Assembly (NCBI GenBank): GCA_026417735.1
Contig: JAOACR010000020.1
Location: 148,595-212,594 of the forward strand
DNA from: Kiritimatiellia bacterium
GTDB lineage: Bacteria > Verrucomicrobiota > Kiritimatiellia > PWTM01
Direction of reading: 5' to 3'
DNA length: 64,000 nt
A model generated the notes under the pieces. That model was not told the DNA's origin. It was given only the letters and a program-made list of their open reading frames with translations, and did not search any database. Made by a program: the position numbers and the translations under genes. This document shows positions 21,906-52,160 of the stretch, piece after piece; the first letter of the stretch is position 1; the number at the start of each line of letters is the position of its first letter.

Positions 21906-21992
21906 GCCGGAGTGGCGGAATCGGCAGACGCAGCAGACTCAAAATCTGCCGCCCGCAAGGGCATGGGGGTTCGAGTCCCTCCTCCGGCACCA
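21906..21992 (+). tRNA. tRNA-Leu (anticodon CAA)
   Basis: Class II tRNA of 87 nt with genomically encoded CCA. The acceptor GCCGGAG pairs perfectly with CTCCGGC and the discriminator is A. The anticodon stem is GCAGA/TCTGC around the loop CTCAAAA, giving anticodon CAA (reads UUG). A long variable arm (about CGCCCGCAAGGGCAT) precedes the T arm with GGTTCGAGTCC. It lies 22 bases before rlmD on the same strand, so the two may be co-transcribed. Confidence 0.95.
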
Positions 21993-44397: not shown

Positions 44398-45326
44398 TTG
44401 CCCGAAGCCGGCGCGGCGGCGCCGGGCCGTGTCACAAACAGGTCGAACGGCGGCGTCTCGGTGCCGAGGATCACCGTCGCGCGGCGCCCGAGCGTCTGTT
44501 CAAACGCCTGAAGCTTACGGAGGAACAGAGCCAACTCTGGATCCTGCTCAAAAACGCGGTATGCGTCCGCGGCGGCCGCGTCACCCTCCGCGCGCAGTCG
44601 CAGCGCGTCCGCGTCGGCCTCGGCGAGCATCTGCTCCCGTCGCGACTCCGCCTCCGCGCGAAGCCGAGCCGCCTCCGCATCACCTTCCGCACGGTAGGTT
44701 TCTGCGAGCGCGGCGCGCTCCGCCCGCATACGCTCGTAAACCCGTTCCAGAATCGCGGGCGGCAGCCCCAGCGAGCGAACTCCGACCGCGGTCAACTCGA
44801 TTCCATACCGCTCCAGCGCCTCGGGCGCGGCGGCCGCTGCGATCTCGGACTCGATCGCTTCCAGCTTCAGCTCGGTCGGCTCCGGGTGGACCAACGCCTC
44901 AAACGCATGCCGTCCGATCACCGCGTTGCGCCAGTGACCAAGCAGCCCATTCAGGTTCCGCCGCGCGCGCTCAAACGTGCCCACCCGCTCCAGAAACTTC
45001 ACCGGTTCGGCAACGCGCCAGATCGCATACAGCGAAACCATCACCGGGCGCCCGTCCCGCGTCAAAGTCTGCTCCAACGCGCCTTCCCAAACCTGTGCCC
45101 GGGCATCGAAACGGTGCACCGTCTGCACCGGCCACGGCCATCGACGATGCAGCCCGGGACGAGTGAGTGGCGCCGACGCGACCCGGCCGAACGTCGTCAC
45201 CACTGCGACCTCACCCTCCCGCACGATCAGCAAGACCTGCGTCATCAGCAGCAGCACCGCCGCGCCGATCATCAGCACGGCGGTCAGCCGCTGCCCGCCC
45301 GGCCCAGTCGGTGCCGTCGCACTCAT
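44394..45326 (-). CDS. SPFH/Band 7 protein, HflC-like (second of three)
   Basis: 310 residues from the ATG at 45326, which overlaps the preceding stop (ATGA). A single N-terminal helix (LTAVLMIGAAVLLLMTQVLL) is followed by VREGEVAVVTTFGRVAS and PGLHRRWPWPVQTVHRFDAR, the standard opening of HflC. The coiled-coil tail contains ARLRAEAESRREQMLAEADA, very like HflC/prohibitin. It should pair with the HflK-like protein upstream. Confidence 0.82.
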   Translation of the reverse strand: MSATAPTGPGGQRLTAVLMIGAAVLLLMTQVLLIVREGEVAVVTTFGRVASAPLTRPGLHRRWPWPVQTVHRFDARAQVWEGALEQTLTRDGRPVMVSLYAIWRVAEPVKFLERVGTFERARRNLNGLLGHWRNAVIGRHAFEALVHPEPTELKLEAIESEIAAAAAPEALERYGIELTAVGVRSLGLPPAILERVYERMRAERAALAETYRAEGDAEAARLRAEAESRREQMLAEADADALRLRAEGDAAAADAYRVFEQDPELALFLRKLQAFEQTLGRRATVILGTETPPFDLFVTRPGAAAPASGK

Positions 45327-47209
45327 CGCACGACCTCCTCCGCCCGCACCCCCGCGGGCGAGCGGTTCGTCAGCACGCCGATGTCCCACAACACGGAGGA
45401 CACCTTCGGCTCCAGATTCAGCTGCACCACCTCGCGGCCCGCCGCCGCAGCGATCAGATAGAGTCGGGGCCGCTGCAGCGCGGCGACTACCGCGTCCAGC
45501 GCCGCGCGGCCGGCATATACCACCGGACTGGCGGCCGCAGCCGCCTGCCGCGCCCGAAACCGCTCCGCTTCAGCAGCCGCGACCACAGAACGGCGCCCGC
45601 GTTCCGCCATCGCCGCCAGCCGTCGGCCCTCGGCAGCAGCGCGGGCCACCGCCTCCATGCGGGCCGCCTCTCCCCGCGCCCGCAGCACCGCCGCCTCGCG
45701 TCGCTCCATCGCCGCCACGACATCCTCAAACGCCTCCGCCACCTCCACCGGCGGGTGAACGTCCCGCAGACCGACGAACGTCACCTCGATACCCAGATTC
45801 AGACGTCCCACTTCACGACGCAGCCGCTCCGCCACCGTGCGGCCAAACTCCGCCTGCCCCGCCCCCAGCACGTGCATCACATCCCGTCCCGCCAGCTCCG
45901 CGGTGACCGCGCGCGTCGCCACGGCTCTGATCGCCGCGTGCGGGTCCGCCGCACCATAGAGATACCGCACCACGTTCGTGATCCGGTATTCCACCGGGAT
46001 GTTCACCGCCAGCACCCCCACCGGCGCGGCCGCAGGCGCATTGGTCCCGGCCAGAGCGCGCGCGCCACTCAAAAAGAGGTCCTCCCGCCGATAGTGCGCG
46101 CGCGTCCACAGCATTTCAGCAATCCCCCCCTCGTCCCCCTCGTAGCCGATGGTCAGACGCTGCAGCCGTCGAACAGGCGCACGGCGAATCGTCTCGAAGG
46201 GCCAGGGCCAGGTCCAGTGCCACCCCGGCCCCACCAGGCCCTCGGGCTCCGGCAACGGCCGGCCCAGCCGCTCCCGCACGCCTTCCTCTTCCGGTCCGAG
46301 GATCGCCACGCCGCTCCATCCATACAGAACCGCCGCCTGAACGGCGACCAGCGGCGCCAGCGCACGCGCAATTCCTCGCGCCGCCCGCGTGCGGGAAAAC
46401 TCGAAACCGAACTGGTAGTCCACCGACTCCGCCGCGGCGCGCCACCATGAGGCCGGCGAAAGGATCCATCGAACGAAGGCACTCTCGTAGGGCGCCGACG
46501 GCGATTCGTCCGCTCGGCGGGGCCGGTAGAGCTCCAAGAGCGTCCGCACCCACTGCTCCGCGCCCAGCGCGCCGGTCCACACCGCCAGCACGCGCCAGCC
46601 CAGCACCGCCACCCGATCCAAGCCAGCCCAGTGCGCGAGCGCGGCGCCAGCGGCCATCCCCGCGCCGATCGCCGCCGCCCCAAGCACCACGCCCACACCC
46701 CGCAGCAGCGCAAGACCGGGCCCGGCCGCGGCCGACAGATAGTAGCGCGCCGCGACAAGCAACAGGAACGCCGCTCCGCTCTCCCGGCCGGCCGCCACCA
46801 GCCACCGGGATCCCTCTCCACCCTCACCGCCGGCCGGCAAACCCCGCCACCCCTGCACCGCACCAACCAACGCGACCGCCCCCAGCACCGGCGTCGCCCA
46901 CGGCACCACCCACCTCTCAAACACAGCGGCGCTCCGCGCAAAGCCGCCCGCGCCGGCGTCCGCAGCCGCAGGCGCAAACAGCGCCGCCTCCGGCCGCACG
47001 GCTGCCATCCGCAGCTCTTCCGCCTCCTCCCGCACCCGCCGCGCCAGATACAGCCGCACCGCAACCAGCGCGCAGGTTCCGACCGTCCAGAGGTAAAGGT
47101 ACAGCGTGGGCGGCCCCATCCCACCGCCGGCGGCCGGCGCCGACGCCGCTGCGGCCGCAAGACTCAACACCATCGCCGCCAACGCCGCGCGTTCGCCCGA
47201 CCGCTGCAT
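45323..47209 (-). CDS. Polytopic HflK-like SPFH protein (first of three)
   Basis: 628 residues; ATG at 47209 overlaps the permease stop (ATGA). The first 250 or so residues hold about five to six membrane segments (for example YLYLWTVGTCALVAVRLYLA and VVLGAAAIGAGMAAGAALAH), unlike normal HflK, which has one. The C-terminal half is HflK-like: WSGVAILGPEEEGVRERLG, VGPGWHWTWPWPFETIRR and VNIPVEYRITNVVRYLYG, then a coiled coil rich in Ala, Arg and Glu. This is a fusion of an integral membrane domain with an SPFH module. Confidence 0.75.
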   Translation of the reverse strand: MQRSGERAALAAMVLSLAAAAASAPAAGGGMGPPTLYLYLWTVGTCALVAVRLYLARRVREEAEELRMAAVRPEAALFAPAAADAGAGGFARSAAVFERWVVPWATPVLGAVALVGAVQGWRGLPAGGEGGEGSRWLVAAGRESGAAFLLLVAARYYLSAAAGPGLALLRGVGVVLGAAAIGAGMAAGAALAHWAGLDRVAVLGWRVLAVWTGALGAEQWVRTLLELYRPRRADESPSAPYESAFVRWILSPASWWRAAAESVDYQFGFEFSRTRAARGIARALAPLVAVQAAVLYGWSGVAILGPEEEGVRERLGRPLPEPEGLVGPGWHWTWPWPFETIRRAPVRRLQRLTIGYEGDEGGIAEMLWTRAHYRREDLFLSGARALAGTNAPAAAPVGVLAVNIPVEYRITNVVRYLYGAADPHAAIRAVATRAVTAELAGRDVMHVLGAGQAEFGRTVAERLRREVGRLNLGIEVTFVGLRDVHPPVEVAEAFEDVVAAMERREAAVLRARGEAARMEAVARAAAEGRRLAAMAERGRRSVVAAAEAERFRARQAAAAASPVVYAGRAALDAVVAALQRPRLYLIAAAAGREVVQLNLEPKVSSVLWDIGVLTNRSPAGVRAEEVVR

Positions 47210-48192
47210 CAGCACTTCACTTCCGCGGAACGCAGCAGCCATGTGCCGATCGCCAAAACCCCGCTCACGTACAGCGCCGCATACGCTGTCGCCATCGCCA
47301 CATACCGCAGTGGCACCGGCACGCCAAGGTTCACCGCGTCCGCCATCCAGAAATGTTGCCAGTTGGGTACCAGCGCGTACACTGCCGCCGCCCAGCGCCG
47401 CGTCGCCGCCAGCCGGCCGAACAGATAGTCGCTCATCAAACCCGCCAGAAACACCGCGCCGGTCAGCGCCATCGTCGGTACGACGTCCAGCCGCGTCGCA
47501 AACATGAGCGCGATCGCGGCGAGAACCAGTAGCGCGATCGCGATCAGCACGTTCGCCCCAATCATCGGCACCGAGTAGAACTCTCCGACCCGTGTCGGCG
47601 CTACACCCTCCCGCGGCCGGCCACCACCCACCCAGAACGCGACCCAAACTGCCGCGGTCAAAAACCAGCCCGCATCCGCGACGAAGGGCCGTCGCGTCAA
47701 ATAGTTCCATCCCGCCGCCAGTAACCACGCCACCGGCGCGGTCAACAACAGCGGTACTTCGCCCCCCCAGTCCCAGAAAAACGGCACCGCCATCACCCGC
47801 GCCGCCATCATCGTCGCCGGTGCAATCGTGAGCGAAAACATGAGCATCCCGCCCGCCACCCCCGCGAATTTGCCCACCACAAACGTGCCGCGCCCGACCG
47901 GCTTGCTCAACACCGTGGCCGCGGTGCCGCGCTGCAGCTCCCGCGTCAGCGAATGGCAGGCCGACGTGCCGGCCAGCCACAATCCCAAAAACAGATGGAG
48001 CGCAAGCACGCTATCAGCGACGATCTTCTCGCCCTCGTCCAGCGTATGCGTTGTCAGCAGCGGCATCAGCGCACAGCCCACCACCGCGGTGGTGGTCAGC
48101 AACAGCGTGAGTGGCTGTCGCGCGATCTCGCGGCGCGTCGCCGCCGCCACCGCCCAACCCGCCTGAATCGCCGCGCGCATCCCCACCAGCAT
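47209..48192 (-). CDS. ABC-2 type permease without a nearby ATPase
   Basis: About 327 residues from the ATG at 48192 (a GTG at 48201 and an ATG at 48180 are alternatives). Six or more membrane segments are visible, e.g. SVLALHLFLGLWLAGTS and APVAWLLAAGW. The motif SLTRELQRGTAATVLSKPVG is the characteristic cytosolic loop of ABC-2 exporters. The matching ATPase is not adjacent; it may be the one at 3497 or elsewhere. It is translationally coupled to the polytopic HflK-like gene. Confidence 0.75.
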   Translation of the reverse strand: MLVGMRAAIQAGWAVAAATRREIARQPLTLLLTTTAVVGCALMPLLTTHTLDEGEKIVADSVLALHLFLGLWLAGTSACHSLTRELQRGTAATVLSKPVGRGTFVVGKFAGVAGGMLMFSLTIAPATMMAARVMAVPFFWDWGGEVPLLLTAPVAWLLAAGWNYLTRRPFVADAGWFLTAAVWVAFWVGGGRPREGVAPTRVGEFYSVPMIGANVLIAIALLVLAAIALMFATRLDVVPTMALTGAVFLAGLMSDYLFGRLAATRRWAAAVYALVPNWQHFWMADAVNLGVPVPLRYVAMATAYAALYVSGVLAIGTWLLRSAEVKC

Positions 48193-48243
48193 AATCGCCA
48201 CCGCCCTCGCTGGCGACGCGCTCGCAGAACAGGTGCCGCGGAG

Positions 48244-48272
48244 TTGAAGCGCACACGATGCCGCGGTAGGCT
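48244..48272 (+). promoter_or_regulatory. Promoter of the trp leader and his/trp operon
   Basis: TTGAAG (48244-48249), 17 nt, TAGGCT (48267-48272). Six bases (GTGAAC) later comes the leader-peptide ATG at 48279, so the transcript would start at or next to the ATG. Confidence 0.6.
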
Positions 48273-48278
48273 GTGAAC

Positions 48279-48347
48279 ATGAGGATCGCGCGTCATCCGC
48301 AGCGTGAAGGTTGGTGGGCCGGCGGACCGGCCCGGGTTCGCGGTTGA
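48279..48347 (+). CDS. trpL: Candidate trp leader peptide (22 residues, tandem Trp codons)
   Basis: ATG to TGA gives 22 residues with the central stretch QREGWWAGGPA; the two UGG codons are at 48312-48317. There is no Shine-Dalgarno, but the ATG lies 6 nt after a -10 box, consistent with leaderless translation. Two adjacent Trp codons in so short a peptide are very unlikely by chance. The peptide would serve only as the sensor: ribosomes stall at the Trp codons when charged tRNA-Trp is scarce. It precedes hisF-hisI-trpE-trpG. Confidence 0.72.
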   Translation: MRIARHPQREGWWAGGPARVRG

Positions 48348-48400
48348 TGCGCGCGTCGACGCGATCGAACCCCGGGGCGGTCCCGGGGTTCCGCGTTTTT
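48312..48400 (+). promoter_or_regulatory. Ribosome-mediated transcription attenuator (trp type)
   Basis: Four competing strands are visible. Hairpin 1:2 is GGGCCGG (48316-48322) with CCGGCCC (48327-48333), 4-nt loop, starting inside the second Trp codon. The antiterminator 2:3 pairs CCCGGGTTCG (48331-48340) with CGAACCCCGGG (48366-48376), ten pairs and one bulged C. The terminator 3:4 is at 48360-48400. A ribosome stalled on the Trp codons would cover strand 1, free strand 2 and block the terminator. The segment between holds a 12-nt palindrome at 48352-48363. Confidence 0.75.
48360..48400 (+). terminator. Attenuator terminator hairpin with T-run
   Basis: GAACCCCGGG (48367-48376), loop GCGGT, CCCGGGGTTC (48382-48391): ten perfect pairs. 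The stem can extend by CGC/GCG (48360-48362 with 48393-48395) so that TTTTT (48396-48400) follows directly. It ends 10 bases before hisF. Confidence 0.8.
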
Positions 48401-48410
48401 CGGGACCGAC

Positions 48411-49172
48411 ATGCTGGCCAAACGCATCATCCCATGCCTAGACGTGGACCGCGGACGAGTGGTGAAGGGCGTCCGGTTCGTCGCGCTTCGCGACGCGGGC
48501 GACCCCGTCGAATGCGCCCGCGCCTACGAAGCGCAGGGAGCCGACGAACTCACCTTTCTGGACATCACCGCCTCCCACGAGCAGCGCGACACGATCGTGG
48601 ACGTCGTCCGCGCGGTCGCGCAACACGTCTTCATGCCCCTGACAGTGGGAGGGGGCATCCGAACCGTCGCCGATATCCGCCGGCTGCTGCAGGCGGGCGC
48701 GGACAAGGTATCGCTGAACACCGCCGCGGTGGCCCGACCGGAGCTGATCACGGAGGGAGCGGAACGTTTCGGCCGCCAGTGCATCGTGCTGGCGATTGAC
48801 GCGCGGCGGCGCGAACAGGGCGACGGTTGGGAGGTCGTCACCCACGGCGGCCGCCGGCGAACCGGCCGCGATGCGGTGGAGTGGGCCCGCGAAGGTGTCC
48901 GGCGCGGCGCCGGGGAAATTCTGCTCACCAGCATGGACCGCGACGGCACCGCGGACGGCTACGACCTTGAGCTGACGCGCGCGATCGCAGACGCGGTGCC
49001 GGTCCCGGTGATCGCCTCGGGTGGCGCCGGCGGCCCCGAACACCTCATCGAGGCGGTCACGCGCGGCGGCGCCGACGCGGTGCTCGCCGCCTCGATCTTC
49101 CATTTCGGCCGGTACTCCATCACAGAGGTGAAACGCGCAATGCGCGCAGCCGGCATTGAGGTACGACTGTGA
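48411..49172 (+). CDS. hisF: Imidazole glycerol phosphate synthase, cyclase subunit
   Basis: A 253-residue TIM barrel that makes the imidazole ring of histidine (with glutaminase HisH, not in the window) and releases AICAR. Catalytic Asp residues lie in [15 protein letters not shown] and VLAIDARRR; phosphate-binding loops are VGGGIRTV and [22 protein letters not shown] is the usual family motif. The start follows the attenuator terminator by 10 bases. Stop overlaps the hisI GTG (GTGA). Confidence 0.95.
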
Positions 49173-49609
49173 ACCGAGGGCGGCCAATGCACAGCTCGCA
49201 CGAACTCGAAGAGGGGCGGACCCTCTCGCTCGACTTCTCGAAACTGGCGGCCGCCGCCGCACGATGCGATGGGCTGCTGCCCGTCGCCGTGCAGCACGCC
49301 GACAGCGGCGAGGTGCTGCTGGTGGCCTACACCAACGAAACCGCATTCCGCCGCGCGGTGGCCACGGGCCGCCTTGTGCTCTGGAGCACATCTCGCAACG
49401 AGCTCTGGGAAAAAGGGGCGACTTCGGGCGAAACTTTTGAGCTCCTCGAGGTCCGCGTGAACTGCGAACAGAACTCGCTGCTGTATCGCGTGCGGCCGCG
49501 CCGCGGCGGCATCTGCCACACGCGCAACGCCGAGGGGCGACCGCGCTCGAGCTGCTTCTACCGCCGGCTGAACCCCGCCACCGGCGAACTGGAGAATCTC
49601 GATCCATGA
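49169..49609 (+). CDS. hisI: Phosphoribosyl-AMP cyclohydrolase
   Basis: 146 residues, single-domain HisI without the HisE pyrophosphohydrolase. Motifs: [19 protein letters not shown] with ATSGETF, the metal-binding region [12 protein letters not shown], and GGICHT followed by RSSCFYRR. It opens the purine ring of PR-AMP in histidine synthesis. The GTG at 49169 overlaps hisF; ATG 49187 is an alternative start. Its stop overlaps trpE (ATGA). Confidence 0.93.
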
Positions 49610-51159
49610 GCGACATCGGCCCTACGCTCAGCGGTGGCCTGCGGTTGCACCCCGGCCCGCGGGAGTTTCGCGAACGCGCGGCGCGCGGCACCCTCGTGCC
49701 CGTCTGGGTCGAACTGCTCGCCGATGAGGAGACGCCGCTTTCCGCCTACGCCCGGGTGCGGAGGGTGCTGCGGCAGCGCGACCACGCCTCCCACACGTTC
49801 CTGCTCGAAAGCGTGGAGGGAGGCGAACGGGTGGGGCGCTATTCGTTCATCGGCGGCGCACCCCGCGCGATCGTTCGCGCGTGGGGCCGGCGCGTCCGCG
49901 TGCAGCATCCCGATGGATCCAGCCTCGAACTGCCGGAGGGTGATCCGCTCGACGCGCTGCAGGGACTGATGGCGCGCTACCGACCGGTTGGGGATCCGTC
50001 GCTGCCGCCGTTCGTCGGCGGCGCGGTCGGGTTTCTCGGCTACGATCTCATCCGCGTCTTTGAGCCACGCGTGCCGGTGCGCGAGGACCAGGCGCTGCGC
50101 GCGCCAGACATGGTGTTCATGATCACCGATGCGCTGCTGGTCTTCGACCGCGCCCGGCACAGCCTCCGCATCCTCGCGAACGCCGACACCACAGAAGGCG
50201 CCGACCGCGCCTACGACCAAGCCGCGGCGACCATTGAATCGCTCGCCGCCGCCCTGCGCGAGCCCGGCGAGAAACGCCTGACCGATGTCACCGCCGCCAC
50301 GACGGTCCCCGAGCCCCGCTCGACGATGTCCCGTGACGAGTTCGAGGAGTCCGTCCGCCGCGCACAGGATCACATCCGCGCCGGCGACATCATTCAAGTC
50401 GTGCTCTCACAGCGTTTCGAAACGGCCTTCGCCGGCGATTCGCTCGATGTCTACCGCGCGCTGCGATGGATCAACCCCTCGCCGTACATGTTCCTGCTCG
50501 ATCTGGGCGAGAGCGCAATGATCGGCAGTTCGCCGGAGGTGCACGTCCGCTGCATCGGCGGAAACGCCACGATCCGCCCGATCGCCGGCACCCGTCCCCG
50601 CGCCGCGTCGCCGGAGGAGGATGCGCGGCTTGAGCGCGAGCTGCTCGCCGACCCGAAAGAACGGGCCGAGCACATCATGCTGGTGGACCTGGCCCGCAAC
50701 GACCTGGGGCGCGTCTGTGAGCCCGGGTCGGTTCGGGTACCGGAACTGATGACGGTGGAACGCTACAGCCATGTGATGCACATCGTGTCGGACGTCACCG
50801 GACGTCTGGCGGCGGACCACAACGTCTACGACCTGATGCGCGCGACGTTTCCCGCCGGCACCGTCACCGGCGCACCCAAAATCCGCGCGATGGAAATCAT
50901 CGCGGACCTCGAGCGCTCGCGCCGCGGACCCTACGCGGGCGCGGTGGGCTATTTCGGCTTCGACGGCAACCTCGATTCCTGCATCACGATCCGCACCATC
51001 ATCCTCGATGAAGGCCGAGCCTATGTGCAGGCCGGCGCCGGCATCGTCGCGGATTCGGACCCGGTGCGGGAGTACGAGGAGACCCGGAACAAGGCCCGGG
51101 CGATGCTGCACGCGCTGGCGCTCGCGCAGCGGTTCGCGGCCGGAGAGAGCCTCCCATGA
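49606..51159 (+). CDS. trpE: Anthranilate synthase component I
   Basis: 517 residues converting chorismate to anthranilate, the first step of Trp synthesis. The N-terminal domain keeps the Trp-feedback motif in [17 protein letters not shown] (LLES). Catalytic regions include [39 protein letters not shown] and [14 protein letters not shown]. It is translationally coupled to hisI and trpG. The other trp genes (trpDCFBA) are not in the window. Confidence 0.95.
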
Positions 51160-51746
51160 TCCTCGTCATCGACAACTACGACTCGTTCACCTGGAACCTC
51201 GTTCAGTACCTCGCCGAACTCGGTGCACATCCGCGCGTGCTGCGCAACGACGCGATCGACGCCGCCGGACTTCTGGCACTGGCACCGGAGCGGCTGATCA
51301 TCAGCCCCGGCCCCGGCTCCCCTGACGACGCCGGTATCTCCTGCGAAGCGATCCGCCGGCTGGCCGGCCGCGTGCCAATTCTCGGCGTGTGCCTCGGCCA
51401 CCAGTGCATCGGCCAGGTCTTCGGCGGCCGGATCGTTCGCGCCGCCCGGTTGATGCACGGCAAAACCTCGTGGATTCACCATCGCGGCGAAGGCATTCTC
51501 GCCGGCCTCCCTGAGCCGTTCGAGGCCACGCGGTACCACTCGTTGCTGATCGAACGGTCCTCTCTGCCCTCTTGCCTGCGTATCACTGGCGAGACCGACG
51601 AAGGCGAGATCATGGCCGTCCAGCACGTCGAATGGCCAGTGTACGGCGTCCAGTTCCACCCCGAGTCCATTCTGACCAAGGACGGCAAGCGTATTTTGAA
51701 GAACTTCCTCGAAATCCCCGTCCGCACGACGTCCTCGGGAGGTTGA
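51156..51746 (+). CDS. trpG: Anthranilate synthase glutamine amidotransferase component (TrpG/PabA)
   Basis: 196 residues, class I glutaminase with nucleophile Cys in [13 protein letters not shown] and the His/Glu pair in VQFHPES; the N-terminus is [16 protein letters not shown]. It supplies ammonia to TrpE. Like many single copies it might also serve p-aminobenzoate synthase. It overlaps trpE by 4 bases (ATGA). Confidence 0.94.
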
Positions 51747-51749
51747 ACG

Positions 51750-52160
51750 ATGGTCCCGATCACCGTCAGCTACCTGGGCAATCTCCGGTGCGAAGCGACG
51801 CATGGTCCCTCCGGCAGCCGCATCGAAACCGATGCGCCCGCGGATAACCACGGGCGCGCGGAGCGCTTCTCCCCCACCGATCTGGTCGCCACCGCGCTCG
51901 GCAGCTGCATGCTGACCATGCTCGGCATCTACGCGCGCGAACGTGGATGGGACCTGACGGGCAGCCGTGCGGAAGTTTTGAAAATCATGGGCGGGCCGCC
52001 CCGCCGGATCACCCAAATCCAGGTGCGTCTGCACATGCCGATCGCGCTGGCACCGGCCGACCGGAGAGAACTGGAGAACCTCGCCCGCGGCTGCCCGGTC
52101 GCCCGCAGTTTGCACCCGGAGCTCCGCACGGACATCACCTTCCACTGGCCGCGCGGCTGA
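51750..52160 (+). CDS. OsmC/Ohr family peroxidase-like protein
   Basis: 136 residues with the two reactive Cys of the OsmC family: ALGSCMLTMLGIYARE and LARGCPVARSLHPE. Members reduce organic hydroperoxides. GGGAGG lies 10-12 bases before the ATG. It follows trpG by 3 bases and is likely the last gene of the attenuated operon. Confidence 0.88.
   Translation: MVPITVSYLGNLRCEATHGPSGSRIETDAPADNHGRAERFSPTDLVATALGSCMLTMLGIYARERGWDLTGSRAEVLKIMGGPPRRITQIQVRLHMPIALAPADRRELENLARGCPVARSLHPELRTDITFHWPRG

What the first reader, a model, noticed from the sequence alone, without database searches (positions are those of the whole stretch)
48244..48410. Complete-looking tryptophan attenuator with leaderless leader peptide
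A 22-codon frame with tandem Trp codons (48312-48317) sits 6 nt after a -10 box. A 7-bp hairpin begins inside the second Trp codon, its 3' strand can pair with the 5' strand of a 10-bp terminator that has a T5 run, and the next gene starts 10 bases later. All four classical strands are present in the right order. Such ribosome-mediated attenuation is well known in Proteobacteria and some Actinobacteria; I am not aware of it being described for the group this genome seems to belong to, nor with a leaderless leader.
Basis: partly seen in the sequence, partly recalled or inferred. Interest (0 to 1): 0.93.

Follow-up and report, generated by a model that had tools for sequence, protein, structure and literature searches.

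The report
Leaderless tryptophan-and-histidine operon attenuator
In front of a joined histidine-tryptophan gene cluster of a Kiritimatiellota bacterium sits a 22-codon reading frame with tandem tryptophan codons and RNA stretches that are predicted to form competing hairpins; the counterparts found in 22 related genomes carry both tryptophan and histidine codons, so ribosome stalling would likely switch the genes on when either amino acid runs short.

Summary
It is conserved. A detector using only promoter, ORF and terminator (no codon criterion; thresholds set after seeing the leaders) finds a leader in 20 of 37 hisF regions with trpE downstream and 0 of 59 others (19 of 36 and 1 of 60 before one locus was reassigned). 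In 23 collected leaders Trp is 46 and His 41 of 372 codons (expected 6.5 and 8.6). W/H order varies, the antiterminator pairs better with its own partner than with swapped ones (p=1e-4), and modelled stalls at Trp or His sequester the terminator arm. Best reading: a bivalent Trp/His attenuator fitted to a mixed his-trp operon. Leaderless attenuators are already known in Sinorhizobium and Streptomyces. In the window's own leader the single His lies 6 codons before WW, so His sensing there is least certain. Nothing was tested in vivo.

The parts
48244..48249 (+). -35 box TTGAAG
   Evidence: sequence; best promoter in the 70 nt upstream of the ORF
48267..48272 (+). -10 box TAGGCT, 17 nt after -35, 6 nt before ATG
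   Evidence: in 21 of 23 leaders the best promoter's -10 ends 6-11 nt before the start codon
48279..48347 (+). leader ORF MRIARHPQREGWWAGGPARVRG with stop, predicted leaderless
48294..48296 (+). His codon 6 (CAT), candidate second control codon
   Evidence: sequence; His enrichment across leaders; here 6 codons from WW
48312..48317 (+). tandem Trp control codons 12-13
   Evidence: sequence; Trp in 23 of 23 leaders
48316..48322 (+). strand 1 of hairpin 1:2
48327..48340 (+). strand 2: pairs with strand 1 (48327-48333) or with strand 3 (48331-48340)
48366..48376 (+). strand 3 / terminator 5' arm
48382..48391 (+). strand 4 / terminator 3' arm
48396..48400 (+). T5 run
48411..49172 (+). hisF
   Evidence: relatives (name recalled from sequence)
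49169..49609 (+). hisI
   Evidence: order conserved (name recalled from sequence)
49606..51159 (+). trpE
   Evidence: name recalled from sequence
51156..51746 (+). trpG
   Evidence: name recalled from sequence
51750..52160 (+). OsmC-like gene, last gene of the apparent operon
   Evidence: name recalled from sequence

Best explanation
The stretch 48244-48400 is likely a ribosome-mediated transcription attenuator of the hisF-hisI-trpE-trpG operon, predicted to be translated without a 5' leader and to respond to shortage of tryptophan and, in the family at large, probably of histidine. Shown: promoter-like boxes, ORF, control codons, complementary strands, terminator, and recurrence in relatives where hisF is followed by trpE. 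Inferred: transcription would start at or 0-5 nt before the start codon and ribosomes would load on the 5' end; with both amino acids plentiful the ribosome runs to the stop codon, covers strand 2 and lets the terminator form; when charged tRNA-Trp or tRNA-His is short it stalls on the W/H cluster, strand 2 (often CGGGGTC) pairs with the terminator's 5' arm (GACCCCG) and RNA polymerase reads on. Because one mRNA carries both pathways, either shortage would open it: an OR gate.
For: Architecture-only detection 20 of 37 linked vs 0 of 59 other regions, all 20 with W and H; with the original 1.3-kb cut 19 of 36 vs 1 of 60, with a 2.7-kb cut 20 of 44 vs 0 of 52 (Fisher 2e-9 and 8e-9). W/H-cluster ORFs 21 of 36 linked, shuffles mean 2.2, max 6, and 3 of 60 others, shuffles 3.9. 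Trp 46 (exp 6.5) and His 41 (exp 8.6) of 372 codons in 23 leaders; His next to Trp in 20 of 23; CAT 26, CAC 15. Best promoter's -10 ends 6-11 nt before the start in 21 of 23; in base shuffles it falls 3-12 nt before the start in 24%; SD-like match in 1 of 23. Antiterminator: combined shuffle p 9e-8 over 23 leaders, partner-swap p 1e-4 for 22 leaders, 6.5e-4 for 17 less related; hairpin 1:2 p 0.003/0.007. Modelled arm sequestration 0.91 at His, 0.81 at Trp, 0.27 at stop; stall minus stop 0.58 vs 0.18 (sd 0.08) in shuffles, 22 leaders. TRAP absent in the 21 leader genomes searched of 23; no Rfam family. Of 40 hisF regions from outside the class, the one with hisI and trpE downstream has a W/H-rich frame with a promoter.
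Against: No RNA or protein data. 14 of 37 linked loci have no leader by either criterion; in 5 of them a long same-strand open frame ends -81 to +4 nt from hisF, in 9 the absence is unexplained. Seven further loci with trpE 1.5-2.6 kb downstream have none either. Eight of the 59 unlinked regions have under 1.3 kb held downstream, so trpE there is unknown. The window's leader has one His, 6 codons from WW, no more than chance by itself; its antiterminator p is 0.10, and only 8 of 23 leaders reach 0.05 singly. L002 and L115 show little or no modelled switch (0.15 and 0.06, below their shuffle means). Without any ribosome the arm is also mostly sequestered (0.67), unlike the textbook case. Pairing outside the CCCCGG core is not better than swapped (p 0.38). 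Streptomyces TrpL1 has 3 His codons with no his gene behind it. The leaders are related, so p-values overstate independence; the 23 were collected partly by their W/H codons, and the thresholds were set after the leaders had been seen.
Confidence: 0.82

Rival explanations
1. A tryptophan-only attenuator; the His codons are kept for RNA pairing or are incidental.
For: Trp is the more enriched residue; the window's His is remote from WW; hairpin 1:2 involves the control-codon region (p 0.003); Streptomyces TrpL1 has His codons without a his gene.
Against: 20 of 20 architecture-only leaders have His; His is 4.7 times background and next to Trp in changing orders; the operon starts with two his genes; stalls at His are modelled to work as well as at Trp.
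Confidence: 0.15
2. A constitutive hisF promoter with an ordinary intrinsic terminator; the small ORF is not regulatory.
For: No expression data exist; 14 of 37 linked loci do without a leader.
Against: Trp/His enrichment, paired antiterminator and link to trpE.
Confidence: 0.04
3. Protein- or tRNA-binding attenuation (TRAP, T-box) instead of a translated leader.
For: A terminator/antiterminator pair could in principle serve any sensor.
Against: Rfam gives only five hits far below threshold, none of them a T-box or trp leader; TRAP absent in 21 of 21 genomes searched; the conserved feature is in-frame W/H codons.
Confidence: 0.02

Closest known systems
Sinorhizobium meliloti trpL / rnTrpL attenuator
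   Same: Leaderless Trp leader ORF, terminator, trpE downstream (PMC7298713, passages).
   Different: 14-aa leader for trpE(G), not a his-trp operon; another phylum.
Streptomyces lividans TrpL1 (trpE) and other leaderless leader peptides
   Same: Leaderless, WWW, hairpins and U-rich stretch before trpE (PMC8079986, passages).
   Different: Monocistronic trpE, no his gene; another phylum; its 3 His are not adjacent to WWW.
E. coli trp and Salmonella his attenuators (Rfam Trp_leader, His_leader; family names recalled)
   Same: Ribosome-mediated logic (PMC1183508, passages).
   Different: One amino acid each, separate operons, SD-led leaders (recalled); no Rfam match here.
Multi-amino-acid attenuators thr and ilvGMEDA of E. 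coli (operons named in PMC1183508; codon content recalled)
   Same: One leader sensing more than one amino acid.
   Different: Those amino acids come from linked pathways; Trp and His do not, here they share an operon (and PRPP as a precursor, recalled).
Mycobacterial leaderless polycysteine attenuator ORFs (Canestrari 2020; seen only as a citation and reference in PMC9094748)
   Same: Leaderless short ORF whose codons sense one amino acid.
   Different: Cysteine, other phylum.

Membership tests
Ribosome-mediated (leader-peptide) transcription attenuator | Short ORF with control codons for the operon's end product | tested here: met
   WW in the window; W and H enriched in 23 leaders
Ribosome-mediated (leader-peptide) transcription attenuator | Intrinsic terminator between ORF and first gene | tested here: met
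Ribosome-mediated (leader-peptide) transcription attenuator | Antiterminator competing with the terminator, strand 2 covered at the stop codon | tested here: met
   met as a group; not in L002 and L115; window alone p 0.10 but a clear modelled switch
Ribosome-mediated (leader-peptide) transcription attenuator | Amino-acid-dependent premature termination | not testable with these tools
   no expression data
Leaderless leader peptide | -10 box placed so that transcription would start at the start codon; no SD | tested here: met
   21 of 23 spacing 6-11 nt (22 of 23 if L055 starts at its ATG), SD-like in 1 of 23; start site itself not mapped
Bivalent Trp/His sensing | Both codons conserved in a control cluster | tested here: met
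   in the window itself only weakly (one His, 6 codons away)
Bivalent Trp/His sensing | Response to each amino acid separately | not testable with these tools
   needs starvation assays
Rfam Trp_leader / His_leader families | Covariance-model match | tested here: not met
TRAP-regulated trp leader | mtrB/TRAP gene in the genome | tested here: not met
   0 of 21 genomes; of the 14 control genomes it rings in Bacillus subtilis

The most novel reading that the evidence does not exclude
A ribosome-operated OR gate for two biosynthetically separate amino acids: leaderless leader peptides sense Trp and His together and go with the fusion of hisF-hisI to trpE-trpG in Verrucomicrobiota, including a differently built 28-codon version (5 His, 3 Trp) in another class that may have arisen independently.
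Probability: 0.75. Interest if true: 0.82.

Novelty: new variant of a known kind. Interest (0 to 1): 0.74.

Why it matters
It extends classical attenuation to a phylum where my searches found no description, and it shows leader peptides whose control codons match the gene content of a chimeric operon. Leaders were found only where trpE follows hisF, which makes the evolution of multi-input attenuators testable by comparison. It also predicts that leaderless translation in Kiritimatiellota is good enough to run a timing-sensitive switch.

Tried and rejected
Rfam scan of the window and of 48150-48550: nothing relevant. Pattern scan TGGCAY...CCCCGG...CCGGGG: 71 of 288 genomes match; five of the listed matches lie just upstream of hisF (G002, G013, G019, G089, G151), the rest look like chance; not used for counts. 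Search for His-only leaders at hisG and Trp-only leaders at trpC in 21 of the 23 leader genomes: 1 hit in 44 loci (L255); it overlaps the end of another open frame and the start of trpC, and its hairpin lies inside trpC, so no single-amino-acid counterpart was found there. Leaders directly upstream of trpE in 38 named loci incl. Pontiella relatives: none convincing. Swap test without the CCCCGG core: no signal. Static MFE with masked strand 1: mixed.

Rows handled specially. L055 was scored from a CTG start, left out, and taken from its ATG. L124 was counted unlinked; trpE was then found 1.8 kb downstream and it was counted linked although the cut for the others was 1.3 kb; recounts with other cuts are. 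L100, L106, L108 (other phyla) were dropped; regions with the same upstream sequence were merged. The late His codon of L002 was left out.

Literature: searches; papers seen as passages only: PMC7298713, PMC2965389, PMC8079986, PMC9094748, PMC1183508; the others as listings. Most subscription papers are not held, so absence is not proof.

Full report
What is there. Searches show, on the + strand, TTGAAG-17-TAGGCT, six bases, ATG, the 22-codon frame MRIARHPQREGWWAGGPARVRG, a 7-bp hairpin that starts inside the second Trp codon, a competing complement to the terminator's 5' arm, a 10-bp terminator whose outer CGCG/CGCG pairs reach the T5 run, and hisF after ten bases. hisF, hisI, trpE and trpG each overlap the next by four bases and an OsmC-like gene follows after three; gene names come from sequence recognition, and the order hisF-hisI-trpE-trpG is repeated in relatives. 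The nearest records that carry a taxon name are Kiritimatiellae/Kiritimatiellota (L034, L035; the three nearer ones are named uncultured bacterium).

Folding. The whole leader folds into the 1:2 plus terminator form, -71 kcal/mol; 3 of 200 shuffles fold as well. Masking the RNA up to the second Trp codon (fold from 48318) turns the minimum into the antiterminator; masking further (from 48327) restores the terminator. Folding the RNA before strand 4 has been made is closer to what polymerase and ribosome see: the terminator arm is sequestered with probability 0.75 when a Trp codon is in the A site, 0.76 for the His codon, 0.50 without ribosome and 0.09 with the stop codon there (footprint assumed to end 13 nt after the first base of the A-site codon).

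Relatives. hisF was searched in 58 and then 288 genomes of the class, and stretches around it were fetched. After merging duplicates and dropping three regions of other phyla, 96 upstream regions remained: 36 with trpE within 1.3 kb, plus L124, whose trpE appeared 1.8 kb downstream when more sequence was fetched, and 59 others. Of these 59, eight have under 1.3 kb held downstream and seven have trpE 1.5-2.6 kb away. A detector that asks only for a promoter ending 5-11 nt before an ATG/GTG frame of 10-30 codons and a terminator behind it finds 20 of 37 and 0 of 59. Counted without moving L124 it is 19 of 36 and 1 of 60; with every locus that has trpE within 2.7 kb as linked, 20 of 44 and 0 of 52. 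Thresholds were set after the leaders had been seen, but the detector does not look at codons, and all 20 frames contain both Trp and His. A detector based on W/H clusters gives 21 of 36 against a shuffle mean of 2.2 and maximum of 6, and 3 of 60 against 3.9; the three are L124 and two (L129, L176) taken as chance.

Codons. In the 23 collected leaders (23 genomes, eight families as labelled) there are 46 Trp and 41 His among 372 codons, 7.1 and 4.7 times the frequency in 13 window proteins. The next most enriched residues are Asn (3.1 times) and Lys (2.8 times). Part of the set was collected by W/H codons, so the unbiased statement is the 20 of 20. Examples: MKNFWWHHGEDGAIL, MVTSWHWHDEGVSAGA, MNTQHGWHPWRSTGS, MSTRNNSHAWHRENGGSR, MKTARRHWWPAWRAFGPAPVHP. 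The order of W and H changes while both stay, which speaks for selection on both amino acids. The window's own leader is the weakest case for His: one His, six codons before WW.

Leaderless start. In 21 of 23 leaders the best promoter in the 70 nt upstream has its -10 box ending 6-11 nt before the start codon; in base shuffles it falls 3-12 nt before it in 24%. The -35 begins TTG in 22 of 23, the spacer is 16 or 17 nt in 23 of 23, and one leader has an SD-like match. L055 fits too if its upstream ATG is the start (6 nt). The start site is therefore predicted at or just before the start codon; it has not been mapped.

Competing pairings. Strand 2 lies mostly between the W/H cluster and the stop codon. 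Its pairing with the terminator arm beats shuffles overall (combined p 9e-8; 8 of 23 leaders at 0.05 or below, the window 0.10) and beats pairing with other genomes' arms (p 1e-4 for 22, 6.5e-4 for 17 less related). Hairpin 1:2 shows the same more weakly (0.003, 0.007). The arm extension without its CCCCGG core gives no signal (0.38). Across leaders the modelled arm sequestration is 0.91 for stalls at His, 0.81 at Trp, 0.27 at the stop and 0.67 without ribosome; the difference stall minus stop is 0.58, shuffles 0.18 with sd 0.08 (22 leaders). L002 and L115 do not behave.

Outside the class. From 288 genomes drawn from the phylum, 40 hisF regions of other classes were fetched. Its terminator lies further off than the detector's 95 nt, so it did not pass the architecture test. 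A second W/H match, L300, has neither promoter nor terminator and is taken as chance.

Controls on the reading. TRAP is absent in 21 of 21 leader genomes searched. Neither hisG nor trpC in those genomes is preceded by a comparable leader (1 hit in 44 loci, overlapping coding frames). So the leader goes with the joined operon, not with his or trp genes in general. Fourteen of 37 linked loci show no leader by either criterion; in five of them a long same-strand open frame ends -81 to +4 nt from hisF, so hisF is probably not the first gene there; nine are unexplained.

Known work. Leaderless leader peptides: S. meliloti rnTrpL (PMC7298713, passages) and S. lividans (PMC8079986, passages). Streptomyces TrpL1 contains three His codons without a his gene, a caution. 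The 2010 survey of premature terminators states that leader-peptide systems had been shown only in Proteobacteria and Actinobacteria and adds bacilli (PMC2965389, passages). Searches for Kiritimatiellota or Verrucomicrobia with attenuation, for hisF with trpE and leader peptide, and for Trp-and-His leaders listed no description (one search listed 15 of 57).

Verdict. Attenuation: very likely. Two-amino-acid sensing in the family: likely. In the window's own genome the His part is the least certain. It is a new variant of a known kind.

Noticed in passing
L055:195-374 (same leader in L289): Another class of the phylum has a 28-codon leader with 5 His and 3 Trp and a different terminator before hisF-hisI-trpE; possible independent origin.
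   Followed up: partly
L012, L030, L117, L120, L125: hisF-hisI-trpE operons without a leader in which a long same-strand open frame ends -81 to +4 nt from hisF.
   Followed up: partly
L011, L021, L035, L141, L162, between terminator and hisF: Degenerate ATTACGATTA-type simple repeats in the gap; GAAACCC repeats upstream of hisF in L008.
   Followed up: no
L002, L115: Leaders with Trp and His codons but little or no modelled antitermination switch.
   Followed up: no
window 45323-47980, - strand: 885-codon open frame ending in an HflK/SPFH-like stretch and overlapping an ABC-permease-like frame at 47209-48201 (names recalled).
   Followed up: no
window 21906-21989: tRNA gene (Rfam tRNA, 55.8 bits).
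   Followed up: no
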